DNA from: a bacterium
Lineage (GTDB): Bacteria > BMS3Abin14
DNA length: 10,415 bases
Reading direction: 5' to 3'
Assembly: GCA_029210545.1 (NCBI GenBank)
Contig: JARGFV010000091.1
Coordinates: 1-10,415 of the forward strand
The notes under the pieces are model-generated. The model was not told the DNA's origin and ran no database searches. It saw only the letters and a program-made list of their open reading frames with translations. This document shows positions 1 through 10,415 of the stretch, one piece after another (position 1 is the stretch's first letter; the number at the start of each line of letters is the position of its first letter). The position numbers and the translations under genes are program-made.

Positions 1-164
1 AAAGTCCAATCCGGGACTTTTCGCTCCACGGAAAGGGAAAAGCGTCGTTTTCCCTTTCCTCACAAATCAATGACTTAGGGTGTGGGTCATTGATTTGAGC
101 GCCCCGCGCGGGGCGCGTTGATGGACTTTTTGCGAGTCCATCAACTTTTAACCGCATCGCGGTT
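1..164. repeat. Multi-hairpin intergenic repeat element (right part and flank)
   Basis: Six inverted repeats follow each other almost without gaps. Arms are 1-7/14-20 (7 bp), 30-41/48-59 (12 bp, loop GCGTCG), 63-74/86-97 (12 bp), 99-116 (an 18-base perfect palindrome of G and C), 117-127/135-145 (11 bp, loop TTTTGCG) and 150-155/159-164 (6 bp). The first 60 bases recur exactly at 10354-10413. The sequence GGACTTTTTGCGA at 123-135 is the inverse of TCGCAAAAAGTCC at 10348-10360. A full element would therefore be about 141 bp with 13-14 bp terminal inverted repeats, like a MITE. No protein is encoded. The pairing and repeat identity are seen directly; the element boundaries and mobility are inference. 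Confidence 0.8.
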
Positions 165-3943: not shown

Positions 3944-4360
3944 CTATTTTTTTCCAGCCACCTGGACCCTTATCACTGCTTTTTCCAGGCGGACCTTGGC
4001 CCTCTCGTAATCCGGGTCGTCCTTGCCGGCGGTGAGCATCTTCTCGGCCTCTTCCAGAGCCATGCGCGCCCGGTTCACATCGATCTCGGTGGCCCTTTCG
4101 GCGGCCTCCACCAGGACCTTGACGCTGCCTCCTGTCACCTCCACGTATCCCCAGGAGACAGCCAGGTGCTCAGCCTTGCCCCCGGTACGGTAGACGAGTT
4201 CCCCCACCTTGAGGGTGGTGAGGAACGGGATGTGCCCCTCGAGGACTCCGAACTCCCCTTCGATACCGGGAAGGACGACCTCGTCCACCTCTTCCGAGAC
4301 GACGACTCTTTCCGGCGTGACGATCTCGAGCATAATCTTTCCGCTGGTAGCTTCTGCCAT
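3944..4360 (-). CDS. atpC: ATP synthase F1 epsilon subunit
   Basis: Part of the central stalk, at the foot of gamma on the c ring; it couples rotation and can inhibit ATP hydrolysis. The 138 residues are the usual length. The N-terminal beta-sandwich carries LEIVTPERVV (11-20) and GEFGVLEGHIPFLTTLK (35-51). The C-terminal part from about residue 88 is a two-helix domain rich in Glu, Arg and Ala. It holds IDVNRA at 93-98, which fits the I(L)DxxRA motif linked to ATP binding by epsilon in some Bacillus enzymes. ATG at 4360 lies 12 bases after atpD. It is the last gene of the operon, followed by the terminator at 3874-3909. Confidence 0.97.
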   Translation of the reverse strand: MAEATSGKIMLEIVTPERVVVSEEVDEVVLPGIEGEFGVLEGHIPFLTTLKVGELVYRTGGKAEHLAVSWGYVEVTGGSVKVLVEAAERATEIDVNRARMALEEAEKMLTAGKDDPDYERAKVRLEKAVIRVQVAGKK

Positions 4361-4372
4361 GGTCTAGTCCGA

Positions 4373-5857
<1,485 letters not shown>

Positions 5858-5868
5858 CTACGGCCGGC

Positions 5869-6726
5869 TTATTTCATCGCTTCCTTGCCGCTGACAACCT
5901 CGATGAGCTCGGTGGTTATCGCAGCCTGGCGTGTCCTGTTGAACAGGAGGGTCAGCTTGTCGATCATCTCCTCGGCGTTCTTGCTCGCCGCCTCCATGGC
6001 GGTCATCCGGGCACCGTGCTCGCTGGCTATCGACTCCAGGAAGACCCTGTATACCTGGACGTTGATGTGCCGCGGCAGGAGCTCTTTTAGAAGGACTTCC
6101 TCGGAGGGCTCGAAGGTGTATTCCACCGCGTTGACCTCTTCCGTGATGTCCATGGGCTTGATGGGCAGCAGCTGCTCCACGATGACCTTCTGCTGGATAG
6201 CCGACTTGAACTCGTTATAGACCATGAAGACCTGGTCGAACTCCTCGCTGAGGTAGTTTTCAACCATGTCGTTTCCGATGGCGGCAGCGTGCGAGAACGA
6301 GATGTCGGAAAGGATGTTCAGGGACACTTTCCGGATTTTTCTATCCCGGCGCTTGAAGTAATCGGAAGCCTTCCGGCCGACGAGGTGGAGGGTGAACTCC
6401 CAGTTCGGGTGCTCATTCATGAACCGCTCGGCCCGCCGGATGATGTTGGAGTTGAACGCTCCGCAAAGCCCCCGATCGGAGGTCACCACCAGCAGGTCCA
6501 CCTTTTTCGGCTCCCTTGTAACGAGGAGAGGGTGGGCCTGGGGGTTGGTTCTCAGGGCGAGGCTCGAAAGAACCTCCAGCATCTTGTGAGCATAGGGCCG
6601 CGACGCCAGGATGGCTTCCTGGGCACGGCGAAGCCTTGATGCCGCCACCATCTTCATGGCCTTGGTGATCTGCTCGGTGTTCTTGACCGACGTGATCCGC
6701 CGCTTGATATCCCTCAGGGTGCTCAT
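5869..6726 (-). CDS. atpG: ATP synthase F1 gamma subunit
   Basis: The rotating shaft inside the alpha3beta3 ring. The 285 residues match the family. The N-terminal helix reads MSTLRDIKRRITSVKNTEQI and continues TKAMKMVAASRLRRAQ, a hallmark. The middle Rossmann-like domain has VTSDRGLCGAFNSNI. The C-terminal helix has ARMTAMEAASKNAEEMIDKL and ends in a QAAITTELIEVVSG block, also conserved. No insert like the redox loop of plant chloroplasts is present. ATG at 6726 is about 50 bases after atpA; AAGGAG is upstream but at 14 bases, a long spacing. Confidence 0.97.
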   Translation of the reverse strand: MSTLRDIKRRITSVKNTEQITKAMKMVAASRLRRAQEAILASRPYAHKMLEVLSSLALRTNPQAHPLLVTREPKKVDLLVVTSDRGLCGAFNSNIIRRAERFMNEHPNWEFTLHLVGRKASDYFKRRDRKIRKVSLNILSDISFSHAAAIGNDMVENYLSEEFDQVFMVYNEFKSAIQQKVIVEQLLPIKPMDITEEVNAVEYTFEPSEEVLLKELLPRHINVQVYRVFLESIASEHGARMTAMEAASKNAEEMIDKLTLLFNRTRQAAITTELIEVVSGKEAMK

Positions 6727-6776: not shown

Positions 6777-8294
6777 CTATCCGTAAACGAACTCTTCCTT
6801 GAACCTGGCAAGGGCGCCGTCCATCCTGCCCTTGATGTCGTCGGTAAACTCGTTTTTCTCGGCCAGTTCTTGCATGAGCTCGCCATAACGGTTGTCCATG
6901 AAGTGGTAAAGCTCAACCTCGAACTTGCCCAGGGCTTCCACGGGGTAGCCGTCGATGTGTCCGTTGGTGGCAGCATAGATGAGGACAGCCTGCTTGGACA
7001 CCGGCAGAGGCACATACTGGCCCTGCTTGAGGATCTCCACCAGCCTCTCGCCCCGTGCCAGCTGCATCTGGGTCGCCTTGTCAAGATCCGACCCGAACTG
7101 GGCGAAAGCCGCCATTTCACGGAACTGGGCCAGTTCGAGGCGAAGCCGGCCTGCCACCTGCCGCATGGCGCGCACCTGGGCGGAACCGCCGACCCTGGAT
7201 ACCGAGATGCCCACGTTGATGGCGGGCCTGATGCCCGAAAAAAACAGGTCGGACTCGAGGAAGATCTGTCCGTCGGTGATGGAGATGACGTTGGTGGGGA
7301 TGTAGGCCGAAACGTCACCGGCCTGGGTCTCGATGATGGGCAGGGCCGTCAGGGAGCCCCCACCCTCTGCGTCGCTCATCTTGGCGGCGCGCTCCAGAAG
7401 TCTTGAGTGGAGGTAGAAGACGTCCCCGGGGTAGGCCTCGCGGCCGGGGGGGCGACGGAGAAGCAGGGAAAGCTGCCTGTAGGAGGCGGCGTGCTTGGAA
7501 AGGTCGTCGTAGATAACCAGGGCGTGCTGACCGTTGTCCCTGAAGTGCTCGCCCATGGAGCACCCGGCGAAGGGTGCGAGGAAAAGCAGGGGGGCCGGCT
7601 CGCTGGCGGTTGCGGCGACGATGATGGTGTACTCCAGGGCGCCCTGCTCTTCCAGGTCACGGGCGACACGGGCCACGGTAGACGCTTTCTGTCCCACCGC
7701 GACGTAGATGCAGATGACCGGGTCGGGGGAGTGCTGCTGGTTGATGATGGTGTCGATGGCCACAGCCGTCTTGCCTGTCTGGCGGTCGCCGATGATGAGC
7801 TCCCTCTGGCCGCGGCCGATGGGGATCATGGAATCGATAGCCTTGATGCCGGTCTGGAGTGGCTCCTTAACCGGCTGGCGCTTGACGATACCGGGTGCGA
7901 TAACCTCTACCAGGCGGGTGGCTTCGGCCTCGATGGGGCCCTTGCCGTCGATGGGCTGGCCCAGGGCGTTGACCACCCTGCCGAGCAGGCCTTTCCCGAC
8001 GGGGACCTCAACGATTCGCCCGGTGCGCTTGACGATGTCGCCTTCCTTGATGAGCTGATATTCACCAAGAAGGACAATACCCACGTTGTCCTCCTCGAGG
8101 TTGAGCACCATCCCGAAGACCTCCCCGGGCAGCTCGACGAGCTCACCGGCCATGGCGTTCTCGAGGCCGTGAACACGGGCGATCCCGTCACCGGTGGACA
8201 GGACGATCCCTGTCTCCTTGACGTCAACCGTCTTTTCAAACCCCTCGATCTGTTTCCTGATAATCTCGGTTATCTCTTCAGCTCTTATCTGCAT
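6777..8294 (-). CDS. atpA: ATP synthase F1 alpha subunit (regulatory)
   Basis: Alternates with beta in the F1 head and holds the non-catalytic nucleotide sites. The 505 residues are the normal length. Walker A GDRQTGKT is at 169-176, a Walker B-type strand ALVIYDD at 258-264, and the [17 protein letters not shown] segment holds the arginine finger Arg367 that reaches into the catalytic site on beta. The N-terminus ([20 protein letters not shown]) is the helix that docks onto delta. ATG at 8294 lies six bases after atpH; the ribosome site GGGGAG overlaps the end of atpH, so the two are probably translationally coupled. Confidence 0.98.
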
Positions 8295-8300
8295 CGCGAC

Positions 8301-8846
8301 CTATCTCCCCTTGCTGAGGCTGTCTTTGATCAACGCCAACTGGTTCTTGAGGCTTCCGTCGTAGACCTGGCTGCCCATGTAGGCGACCACGCCTCCGAGC
8401 AGGCTCTCGTCCTCCTCGATCTCGAGGATGACGTCCTTTCCGGATATCCTGGAAAGGGCCTCCTTTATCTTGTCCTTCTCTTTGTCTTCAAGTTTCGAGG
8501 CCGAAACGACCATGGCCCTGGTTCGGTTTGTCAGCTGGTCCGACAGATCCCTGTACGACCGTGAGATCTCACCGATGCCGAGGATCCGGTTCTTCTCGTT
8601 GAGAACGTGGATGAACCGCATGGTCAGTTCCTGGATGCTCCCTTTTCTGAGGATCTCCTCCAGGACCTTTTCCTTGATCTTATGGGCTATGGTGGGATCC
8701 GAAAATACGTTGACCAGGTCCGGGTTTTCGGCGAACAGCCCGGAGATCTGCTCCAGTTCCTGCCCGACCTCGGTTACAGAGCCGGCTTCCTGCGCCAGGC
8801 CGATAACCGCCTTGGCATAACGTTTTGCCAGGACGAACCCGATCAC
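8301..8846 (-). CDS. atpH: ATP synthase F1 delta subunit
   Basis: Links the top of F1 to the b/b' stator so that the head does not spin with the shaft. The 181 residues match the family. The N-terminal six-helix domain carries LAKRYAKAVIGLAQEAG (6-22), and the C-terminal domain has the conserved segment ESLLGGVVAYMGSQVYDGSL before the end (SVDGSL-like). The start is GTG at 8846, which overlaps the atpF stop by four bases (GTGA), so its translation is coupled to atpF. It ends in TAG six bases before atpA. Confidence 0.96.
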   Translation of the reverse strand: MIGFVLAKRYAKAVIGLAQEAGSVTEVGQELEQISGLFAENPDLVNVFSDPTIAHKIKEKVLEEILRKGSIQELTMRFIHVLNEKNRILGIGEISRSYRDLSDQLTNRTRAMVVSASKLEDKEKDKIKEALSRISGKDVILEIEEDESLLGGVVAYMGSQVYDGSLKNQLALIKDSLSKGR

Positions 8847-9448
8847 TGGTTGGCCTCCAGCTTCTCCAGATATTCTGCGACAAACCTCTGGTGGTCCTCA
8901 GGGGTTACCTTCCGGCTGATGATCTCCTCAGCCAGGGCCACGGCAGCCGCTGCCGCCTCCCGCGTCAGGATATCCTGGGACTTCTTGAGTTCCTGTTCAA
9001 TGGCCGCCGCGGCCTCTACTTTGAATTTTTCCACCGAGGCCTCGGCGTCGGATAAAATCCTCGCCTTCTCCACTTCCGCTTCTTCCCTGGCGTTGGCGAT
9101 GAGCTCCTCGATCTCCTTGTCCACCCCGGCCAGCCGATCCTCGGCTTCCTTCATGCGGACCTCGGCCTCCTTGCGTGCCGCCTCGGCATTCCGGATCATG
9201 GTGCGTACCGACTCGATGCTGTTGCGGACGGCCTCCACAGCCGGTTTCCGGGCGAAGTACAGGAGAGCGCCTACCAGGACCGCGAAGTTGATGATCCGCA
9301 TGACCAGGTCGTAGATGGCCTTGCCCCCGCCCTCGTTTCCTTCACCGCCGGTAGCGGCGAAAGCCAGCACGGGCACCAGGGCCGCGGCCAGAACCAGAAC
9401 AAACCGCCCAGGGGCAGGTCGCATCAAAATTTTCATGGTTGTCCTCAC
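8843..9448 (-). CDS. atpF: ATP synthase Fo subunit b
   Basis: One strand of the peripheral stator: a membrane anchor and a long, charged coiled coil. About 201 residues. Residues 16-31 are hydrophobic with FVLVLAAALVPVLAFAA, like a signal peptide, and a second hydrophobic segment at 48-66 (LVMRIINFAVLVGALLYFA) is the true anchor of the b family. From 68 on the protein is rich in Glu, Lys, Arg and Ala without Pro until near the end (KVTPEDH). The start may be GTG at 9448 (GGGAGG five bases upstream, GTGA overlap with atpF') or ATG at 9436 (GAGG six bases upstream). The extra N-terminal hydrophobic segment may be cleaved or may be a second helix; sequence alone does not tell. Confidence 0.93.
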   Translation of the reverse strand: MRTTMKILMRPAPGRFVLVLAAALVPVLAFAATGGEGNEGGGKAIYDLVMRIINFAVLVGALLYFARKPAVEAVRNSIESVRTMIRNAEAARKEAEVRMKEAEDRLAGVDKEIEELIANAREEAEVEKARILSDAEASVEKFKVEAAAAIEQELKKSQDILTREAAAAAVALAEEIISRKVTPEDHQRFVAEYLEKLEANQ

Positions 9449-9870
9449 AACGCCCTCCCCACCAGCCTGGCTATAATAGCCTGGGCGAGGGAGTTCGCTT
9501 CACCCTGAAGGGCCTGCCTGGAAAGTTCGGCCTGTTCAGCGATCTTCTTCCTGGCGCTCTCGAACTCCGCGTCACTGTCTTCCCGGGCCTTCAGGAGGAC
9601 CCTTCGGAACTCGCCAAGGGCCTCGTTTCGAAGGGAGGTCCTGATCCCCATGGCTTTCAGCTTGGCGCTGTGCAGCCTGGACTCGTACTCCTCGATAGTC
9701 TCCTGTGCAAGGCCGCCCAGCCGCTTTTTCATTTCGGCGGACTCCTTGACGAGAGCCTCCCTTTCGTCCAGGACGCGAAGAACGGGCCTGAAAAGCAGGT
9801 AGTTGAGAATTACCAGTAAAATCAAAAAGTTGGCAAGCTGGACCAATAAGGTAAAGTTAACGCTGATCAA
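9445..9870 (-). CDS. atpF': ATP synthase Fo subunit b'
   Basis: The second, shorter b-type stator subunit. The 141 residues begin with MISVNFTLLVQLANFLILLV, and the single membrane helix spans about 7-27; the motif LFRPVLRVLDER (26-37) follows and the rest is a charged helix. The start is TTG at 9870, supported by GGAGG five bases upstream; no ATG or GTG lies nearby in frame. Separate b and b' genes occur in cyanobacteria, alpha- and deltaproteobacteria, where b/b' form a heterodimer. It overlaps atpF by four bases. The 161-base gap between it and atpE holds a possible promoter. Confidence 0.93.
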   Translation of the reverse strand: MISVNFTLLVQLANFLILLVILNYLLFRPVLRVLDEREALVKESAEMKKRLGGLAQETIEEYESRLHSAKLKAMGIRTSLRNEALGEFRRVLLKAREDSDAEFESARKKIAEQAELSRQALQGEANSLAQAIIARLVGRAL

Positions 9871-10031: not shown

Positions 10032-10286
10032 TCAACCCTTGACAACGAAGATCAGGAGAAGGGCGATGACAAGGGCGTAGATACCCGTGGACTCGGCAAC
10101 CGCCTGCCCGACAAGCATGGTCCTGGTGAGAAGGCCCGCCTGGTCGGGGTTTCTTCCGATAGCTTCGCAAGCCTTGCCGGCGGCAAAACCCTCGCCGATG
10201 CCGGGGCCGATGGCTCCAAACCCCATGGACACACCCGCACCCAGAAGAGCCGCTGCGCGGATCAGTTCAATTCCTGTGATCTCCAT
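10032..10286 (-). CDS. atpE: ATP synthase Fo subunit c, two-carboxylate (Na+-type) ion site
   Basis: The 84-residue hairpin of two helices that forms the rotor ring. Helix 1 is about 8-40, with [13 protein letters not shown] (27-39); the polar loop has GRNPD (44-48); helix 2 is about 53-82, with [14 protein letters not shown] (60-73). The ion-binding carboxylate is Glu65. Ser66, Thr67, Val63, Tyr70 and Pro28 match the Na+ site of Ilyobacter tartaricus without any renumbering, but position 32 is Glu rather than Gln. Glu32 plus Glu65 is the two-carboxylate site described in Fusobacterium nucleatum and seen in Clostridium paradoxum. A strong ribosome site (AGGAGG) lies 10 bases before ATG at 10286. 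atpB is not adjacent: the 67 bases upstream are non-coding and then the hairpin element begins. Confidence 0.97.
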
Positions 10287-10347
10287 AATCTGCTTTCCTC
10301 CTTGAGTAAAAACGATCCCGAAATTAAAGAATCAAACTCTGACAGGG

Positions 10348-10415
10348 TCGCAAAAAGTCCAATCCGGGACTTTTCGCTCCACGGAAAGGGAAAAGCGTCG
10401 TTTTCCCTTTCCTTA
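10348..10415. repeat. Left part of a second copy of the multi-hairpin element, cut by the window end
   Basis: Bases 10354-10413 equal 1-60, in the same orientation. The copy includes the left terminal sequence TCGCAAAAAGTCC (10348-10360), the inverse of 123-135. After 10413 the match ends (TA here, CA at 61-62), so the two copies are not identical. It lies about 62 bases upstream of the atpE start codon and may carry or disturb its leader. Confidence 0.8.

What the first reader, a model, noticed from the sequence alone, without database searches (positions are those of the whole stretch)
10032..10286. c subunit with a two-carboxylate ion site, suggesting a Na+-coupled ATP synthase
Glu32 and Glu65 are both present, with Pro28, Val63, Ser66, Thr67 and Tyr70 at exactly the positions of the Ilyobacter tartaricus Na+ site (where residue 32 is Gln). 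In Fusobacterium nucleatum the Glu32/Glu65 pair was shown to form a Na+ site in which one carboxylate stays protonated. This suggests Na+ bioenergetics, or at least dual specificity, in this organism. The a subunit, which would help decide, is outside the window.
Basis: partly seen in the sequence, partly recalled or inferred. Interest (0 to 1): 0.7.

Follow-up and report, generated by a model that had tools for sequence, protein, structure and literature searches.

The report
Sodium motor with dead rotor sector
The ATP-making enzyme encoded here has a rotor part built to carry sodium ions, and its operon also encodes a conserved three-hairpin rotor part that has lost every ion-binding acid, in a lineage that appears to keep one catalytic head and two different membrane motors (sodium-type and proton-type).

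Summary
In detail: window:10032-10286(-) encodes an 84-aa c subunit with Glu32, Val63, Glu65, Ser66, Thr67 and Tyr70, the full Na+ ligand set of the solved Fusobacterium c-ring. The missing a subunit lies on contig C63, which abuts this contig in relatives. Between a and this c sits an unexpected gene, c3: a fused triple-hairpin c subunit with no ion-binding carboxylate (Ser/Gln/Gln at position 65). It is intact, under purifying selection, and present in all 12 family genomes; the two deepest keep Glu in hairpin 1. Related genes with 2-6 hairpins, Gln in nearly every middle hairpin, lie between a and a Glu32/Glu65 c in about 80 genomes, mostly Desulfobacterales. The single c has a far stronger ribosome-binding site than the multi-hairpin c (55 of 57 loci), as expected if c is the many-copy and c3 a low-copy ring member, like A. 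woodii c1 but longer and with fewer sites. These lineages have one ordinary F1 but two Fo sets: this Na+-type one and a separate H+-type a-c pair. Na+ coupling, ring composition and sharing of F1 are inferred; nothing was measured. Two H+-coupled enzymes with similar motifs warn against certainty. New variant of the hybrid-rotor kind.

The parts
10032..10286 (-). atpE: single-hairpin c subunit with two-carboxylate Na+-type site (Glu32, Glu65, Val63, Ser66, Thr67, Tyr70); strong ribosome-binding site AAGGAGG
10191..10193 (-). codon of Glu32 (GAG)
   Evidence: read
10092..10094 (-). codon of Glu65 (GAG), principal ion-binding carboxylate
   Evidence: read
9445..9870 (-). atpF' (b' stator stalk), TTG start
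8843..9448 (-). atpF (b stator stalk)
8301..8846 (-). atpH (delta)
6777..8294 (-). atpA (alpha), ordinary F1 type (above TIGR00962 cut-off, below the N-type cut-off)
5869..6726 (-). atpG (gamma)
4373..5839 (-). atpD (beta), ordinary F1 type
3944..4360 (-). atpC (epsilon)
10340..10415 (.). copy of a dispersed repeat at the contig end; copies also lie at the other end of this contig and near the ends of C63 and C54. In relatives the c3 gene and atpB continue from here (G000:C63:13756-14490 and 13054-13746, outside the window)

Best explanation
The window c is the ion-carrying, many-copy rotor subunit of a Na+-type Fo encoded by atpI-atpB(a)-c3-atpE(c)-b'-b, joined to F1 (delta, alpha, gamma, beta, epsilon). 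Na+ binds between neighbouring c hairpins through Glu65, Glu32 (kept protonated, as in F. nucleatum), Ser66, the Val63 carbonyl and a water held by Thr67. The low-copy c3 supplies three linked hairpins of the same ring that carry no ion, forming an ion-silent sector, as one hairpin does in A. woodii c1. If the ring has 11 hairpins, like all Na+ F-rings characterised by 2013, one c3 plus eight c would give 8 sites per turn, about 2.7 Na+ per ATP. Shown: sequences, operon, conservation, predicted hairpin packing. Inferred: Na+ as coupling ion, c3 inside the ring, its copy number, the ratio.
For: Full Na+ ligand set, conserved. Synteny atpI-a-c3-c-b'-b-delta-alpha-gamma-beta-epsilon in relatives, including one complete genome. 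c3 present in 12/12 family genomes, omega 0.06-0.15, no stops. Gln65 in 144 of 146 middle hairpins of the multi-hairpin family, so the replacement is not random decay. Where a hairpin keeps Glu65 it mostly keeps Glu32 (89 of 98), so sites persist or vanish as units. AlphaFold2 model of c3 (pLDDT 92.6, pTM 0.88) matches A. woodii c1, a known ring member, best of all solved chains: Z 18.1, 1.7 A over 159 residues. Shine-Dalgarno strength: c -10.4, multi-hairpin c -4.3, a -5.2 kcal/mol; c stronger than multi-hairpin c in 55 of 57 loci, and c3 starts with GTG/TTG in 8 of 12 family genomes. Rnf-type proteins present.
Against: No measurement. Similar motifs occur in H+-coupled enzymes: B. pseudomallei N-type ring, S. 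ovata. Three neighbouring silent hairpins (up to five in relatives) would leave the a-subunit arginine without a carboxylate partner over a long arc, a mechanical difficulty that A. woodii (one silent hairpin) does not face. Hairpin 3 of the family c3 has a longer cytoplasmic loop than normal (alignment), which may weaken contact with the central stalk. Ribosome-binding strength is only a proxy for copy number, and the loci are not phylogenetically independent.
Confidence: 0.6

Rival explanations
1. c3 is not part of the working ring. It acts as an assembly scaffold, plug or regulator for the c-ring, next to AtpI, and the ring is a plain Na+ ring of the window c.
For: c3 lies right after atpI-atpB; it has no ion site at all in most of the family; its weak ribosome-binding site fits a low-abundance factor; three silent hairpins in a ring are mechanically awkward.
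Against: Many relatives keep working Glu pairs in hairpin 1 and often in the last hairpin, which a scaffold would not need. The closest solved relative, A. woodii c1, sits in the ring. Helix packing is predicted as in a ring.
Confidence: 0.2
2. The enzyme is H+-coupled, or uses both ions, despite the Na+-type ligand set.
For: Two-carboxylate N-type ring of B. pseudomallei is H+-selective; S. ovata ATPase has the Na+ motif but is Na+-independent; the two-Glu ring of M. acetivorans is discussed as using both ions (PMC3692424).
Against: The N-type ring has Thr62/Met63 where this one has Ser66/Thr67; here all ligands equal F. nucleatum. The same genomes keep a separate H+-type Fo, so the two sets plausibly differ in ion.
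Confidence: 0.15
3. c3 is a decaying duplicate without function.
For: Loss of all ion-binding carboxylates.
Against: Intact in every genome where it is complete, omega 0.06-0.15, conserved Gln rather than random residues, fixed place between a and c.
Confidence: 0.03

Closest known systems
Fusobacterium nucleatum two-carboxylate Na+ c-ring (3zk1/3zk2; PMC3692424)
   Same: Identical ligand residues Glu32, Val63, Glu65, Ser66, Thr67, Tyr70
   Different: As described there, a ring of 11 single-hairpin c; the operon here adds a fused triple-hairpin siteless c3
Acetobacterium woodii hybrid F/V rotor (4bem; c1 + c2/c3) and Clostridium aceticum (PMC7911925)
   Same: Operon with a multi-hairpin c followed by a single-hairpin Na+-type c; Glu replaced by Gln in the extra hairpin; c1 is the best sequence and structure match of c3
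   Different: A. woodii c1 has 2 hairpins and one site with Gln32-type ligands; here 3 hairpins and no site (relatives 2-6 hairpins), and the single c has Glu32
Archaeal multi-hairpin c/K subunits (M. jannaschii triple, M. kandleri 13 hairpins; PMC2359735)
   Same: Fused hairpins in one chain
   Different: Those are A/V-type; the 13 M. kandleri hairpins keep full sites; here F-type, with a separate single-hairpin c in the same operon
N-type ATPase (B. pseudomallei c17; PMC5376962)
   Same: Two carboxylates in the c site
   Different: Different operon order with atpQ/R, H+-selective, Thr62/Met63; window alpha and beta score below the N-type model cut-offs

Membership tests
Na+-type F-ATP synthase c subunit (I. 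tartaricus / F. nucleatum) | Gln/Glu32, Glu65, Ser/Thr66, polar residue 67, Tyr70 in register | tested here: met
Na+-type F-ATP synthase c subunit (I. tartaricus / F. nucleatum) | Na+-dependent ATPase and Na+ protection against DCCD/NCD-4 | not testable with these tools
   biochemistry needed; sequence exceptions known
Na+-type F-ATP synthase c subunit (I. tartaricus / F. nucleatum) | partner a subunit of Na+ type | tested here: inconclusive
   a found and in a clade apart from the H+-type a; RLFGNI.GG(A/S)II versus RLFGNM.G(DH/HE); no solved Na+ a subunit was available as reference
Hybrid-rotor F1Fo (A. woodii type) | one operon with a multi-hairpin c having fewer sites than hairpins and a single-hairpin Na+-type c | tested here: met
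Hybrid-rotor F1Fo (A. woodii type) | hairpin 1 of the long c keeps a site, the extra hairpin has Gln | tested here: not met
   in G000 all three hairpins lack Glu65 (Ser, Gln, Gln); met in relatives G004 and G009 (Glu, Gln, Gln)
Hybrid-rotor F1Fo (A. woodii type) | both c types present in one ring | not testable with these tools
   needs purified ring
N-type ATPase | operon atpD-C-Q-R-B-E-F-A-G and alternate F1F0 models above cut-off | tested here: not met
   order differs; TIGR03324 613.6 < 750.5 and TIGR03305 597.1 < 752
Ordinary F1 head | alpha and beta above the standard F-type models | tested here: met
   TIGR00962 839.7 > 484.45; TIGR01039 835.8 > 462.85

The most novel reading that the evidence does not exclude
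One F1 head is served by two exchangeable membrane motors: a H+-type Fo (a_H-c_H, at the head of a respiratory operon in this family) and a Na+-type hybrid Fo whose rotor contains an ion-silent multi-hairpin sector. The cell would choose its coupling ion and its ion/ATP ratio by choosing the Fo. Cultured sulfate reducers such as Desulfonema magnum show the same gene set with the Na+ Fo as a free-standing a-c(3-5 hairpins)-c-b'-b cassette in the species mapped.
Probability: 0.35. Interest if true: 0.9.

Novelty: new variant of a known kind. Interest (0 to 1): 0.74.

Why it matters
Ion/ATP ratios are usually read off as (number of c subunits)/3 on the view that every hairpin carries an ion. Here is a broad group of F-type rotors, mostly in marine sulfate reducers, in which evolution seems to have silenced up to five hairpins in a row by Glu to Gln, and in the window's own lineage all hairpins of the long subunit. 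If they are in the ring, they ask how far a rotary motor can coast without an ion, and they would change energy budgets for sulfate reducers, whose Na+/H+ specificity a 2026 study could not settle from the c subunits (PMC13343851). One F1 with two Fo sets would be a switch between proton and sodium energetics at the level of enzyme assembly. Cultured strains make it testable.

Tried and rejected
Oxaloacetate decarboxylase beta as Na+ pump: none in 12 genomes. N-type ATPase identity: rejected by operon order and model scores. Chance or pseudogene origin of c3: rejected. A second F1 for the second Fo: no second ordinary F1 alpha/beta pair in complete G001 or complete D. magnum; the further PF00006 hits were an A/V-type pair and a more distant family member, and in D. 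widdelii FliI inside a fli operon plus a second alpha/beta pair with its own a, probably N-type. Deciding Na+ versus H+ from the a subunit: no solved Na+-type a subunit to compare with. Ring size from the curvature of the six-hairpin model: coordinates not available, only pLDDT 83.8, pTM 0.84. Literature on hybrid rotors in sulfate reducers: the A. woodii ring paper is not held and the 2015 distribution review (Brandt and Muller, Biol Chem) was seen only as a citation, so I cannot exclude that some of these genes were listed there; the searches I ran found no description of 3-6-hairpin F-type c subunits or of one F1 with two Fo sets.

Full report
OBSERVATION. Window 10286->10032 (-) encodes an 84-residue c subunit. 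Pro28, Glu32, Val63, Glu65, Ser66, Thr67 and Tyr70 are at the stated numbers, and the alignment to the solved Na+ rings of F. nucleatum, I. tartaricus and A. woodii keeps the register. These are the ligands reported for the F. nucleatum ring, where Glu32 is held to stay protonated (PMC3692424). Nine of nine relatives with the gene on held DNA keep them.

THE WINDOW AND ITS MISSING NEIGHBOUR. The window is the whole contig C91 of a 2.72 Mb, 97.5% complete genome. It carries atpE-F'-F-H-A-G-D-C on the minus strand and stops about 130 bp before atpE. The only atpB found in this genome is on C63, in the order mnmE-mnmG-rsmG-parA-parB-bactofilin-atpI-atpB, followed by a 244-aa gene, and C63 ends there. 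Related repeat copies lie at both ends of the window contig and near the ends of C63 and C54, which explains the assembly breaks. In eight family relatives the two halves are contiguous, among them G001, a complete single-contig genome: atpI-a-[247 aa]-c-b'-b-delta-alpha-gamma-beta-epsilon. One relative (G008) has them apart, but its scaffold has a run of N inside the 247-aa gene. So the a subunit of this c is the C63 one, and a second c-like gene lies between them.

THE SECOND c: c3. The 244-aa product is three fused c hairpins. At position 65 they have Ser, Gln, Gln; at position 32, Met, Ser, Ser. No ion-binding carboxylate remains. It is found in all 12 genomes of the family. The other family rows that can be read at hairpins 1-2 show the same loss, except G004 and G009, which keep Glu32+Glu65 in hairpin 1. 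In a tree of the a subunits G004+G009 are sister to the rest of the family (support 85), so the site was probably lost within the family. dN/dS of c3 is 0.06-0.15, like a (0.06-0.11), with no stops: it is a working gene.

HOW WIDE IS IT. A scan of one genome per species found 225 relatives; the best 80 were read. They are Desulfobacterales above all, with single or few cases labelled Cloacimonadota, Hydrogenedentota, Coatesbacteria, Margulisiibacteriota, Planctomycetota, Myxococcota and Methylomirabilota. Of 76 complete multi-hairpin genes, 51 have four hairpins, 15 three, 7 five, 2 six, 1 two. The commonest patterns at position 65 are E-Q-Q-E (24) and E-Q-Q-Q (24). Middle hairpins have Gln in 144 of 146 cases. 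Nearly all are followed by a single-hairpin c with Glu32/Glu65. A Hydrogenedentota locus (L136, G-Q-Q-Q) has also lost every site. Rows share ancestry, so the counts are not independent events.

WHAT c3 PROBABLY DOES. The best sequence match among solved chains is A. woodii c1, a two-hairpin subunit (Glu in hairpin 1, Gln in hairpin 2) that sits in the ring with single-hairpin c subunits. The AlphaFold2 model of the closest held c3 (pLDDT 92.6, pTM 0.88) superposes on A. woodii c1 at 1.7 A over 159 residues, Z 18.1, ahead of all V-type subunits. Hence the hairpins are predicted to pack as neighbours in a ring; this does not show that they are in one. Copy number can be guessed from translation signals. 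The c gene has ATG and a strong Shine-Dalgarno (mean -10.4 kcal/mol), the multi-hairpin gene a weak one (-4.3) comparable to or slightly weaker than the single-copy a (-5.2); c is stronger in 55 of 57 paired loci. In the window's family c3 starts with GTG or TTG in 8 of 12. In the window family b', b and delta also have fairly strong signals, so the proxy is rough. The pattern is what a ring with many c and one long subunit would need. With 11 hairpins (the count of all Na+ F-rings characterised by 2013, PMC3692424) this gives 8 sites and about 2.7 Na+ per ATP here, against 3.3 in A. woodii (PMC7793690). This ratio is an inference.

SODIUM OR PROTON. For Na+: full ligand set; an a subunit in a clade apart from the H+-type a, with Ala/Ser where the H+-type has His or Glu nine residues after the essential Arg; Rnf-family RnfC-D-G-E on C83 and a second RnfA/E-type gene on C7, RnfD in 11 of 12 family genomes; a membrane pyrophosphatase in 10 of 12, with the GNTTAA motif in the two relatives read, which by general knowledge marks the K+-dependent class that includes Na+ pumps. 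Against certainty: the H+-selective two-carboxylate N-type ring and the Na+-independent S. ovata enzyme with a Na+ motif. Sequence cannot settle it.

TWO Fo SETS, ONE F1. The genome has a second c gene (C54:15959-16285) with a signal peptide, Gln32 and a single Glu, near a contig end. In relatives an H+-type a lies directly before it, and both head an operon of multihaem cytochrome, cytochrome b, Rieske and further redox proteins. In G000 that a is not seen, because the contig ends first. Complete G001 has one ordinary F1 alpha/beta pair, one A/V-type pair and one more distant PF00006 hit. Complete Desulfonema magnum has one F1 operon (bactofilin-b'-b-delta-alpha-gamma-beta-epsilon), a separate a_H-c_H, and a separate Na+-type module atpI-a-c3-c-b'-b; D. 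widdelii, D. alkenivorans and D. alkaliphila have the same three parts with c4 or c5. In the window's family the Na+ module lies between bactofilin and b' of the F1 operon, as if a cassette had been inserted there; whether one b'/b pair serves both Fo sets was not tested. That both Fo sets use the same F1 is an inference from gene counts.

VERDICT. The larger finding is a conserved carboxylate-free, triple-hairpin rotor subunit in the same operon, the extreme member of a widespread series of multi-hairpin F-type c subunits, in genomes with one F1 and two Fo sets. It is a new variant of the hybrid-rotor kind. I could not read the 2015 survey of hybrid rotors, so some members may have been listed there.

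Noticed in passing
G000:C54:15959-16285 (L008:7960-8286); relatives L146-L155: Second, H+-type c gene with signal peptide; in relatives preceded by an H+-type atpB and followed by a multihaem cytochrome/cytochrome b/Rieske operon. A second Fo set without its own F1.
   Followed up: partly
L070-L142 (most Desulfobacterales loci); L169-L184: Na+-type Fo module atpI-a-cN-c-b'-b with its own b'/b but no delta or F1 genes within the fetched flanks; F1 sits elsewhere in the genome.
   Followed up: partly
L136 (Hydrogenedentota), 7022-8002: Four-hairpin c with no carboxylate in any hairpin (G-Q-Q-Q), apparently an independent total loss; its single c has Gln32/Glu65.
   Followed up: no
L060 (G037), 10618-10881: A single-hairpin c-like gene without Glu65 (Ser) next to atpB, with a separate Glu32/Glu65 c gene downstream: a siteless c without hairpin fusion.
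   Followed up: no
L058 (G013), 8368-9318: Four-hairpin c with E-Q-E-D at the site position directly after atpB, no F1 genes recognised in the 18 kb fetched.
   Followed up: no
L154 (G006:C88): One family member also carries what looks like an N-type ATPase operon (beta-epsilon-...-a-c-b-alpha).
   Followed up: no
window 1-150 and 10340-10415: Dispersed repeat (AAAAAGTCC...GACTTTTTGCG, CGCGCCCCGCGCGGGGCGCCCAAATCAATGAC) at both contig ends and at the breaks next to the other atp genes of this assembly.
   Followed up: partly
G000:C16 (L009): Separate A/V-type ATPase operon with a single-hairpin K subunit (about 72 aa, Gln in helix 1, Glu-Thr in helix 2), preceded by a sensor histidine kinase gene inside the cluster.
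   Followed up: no
window 9870 and relatives: atpF' (b') starts with TTG in 8 of 8 family members tested.
   Followed up: no
G000:C83 and C7: rnf genes are split: RnfC-D-G-E together beside lpxC, and a second RnfA/E-type gene on another contig; the same split is seen in complete G001.
   Followed up: partly
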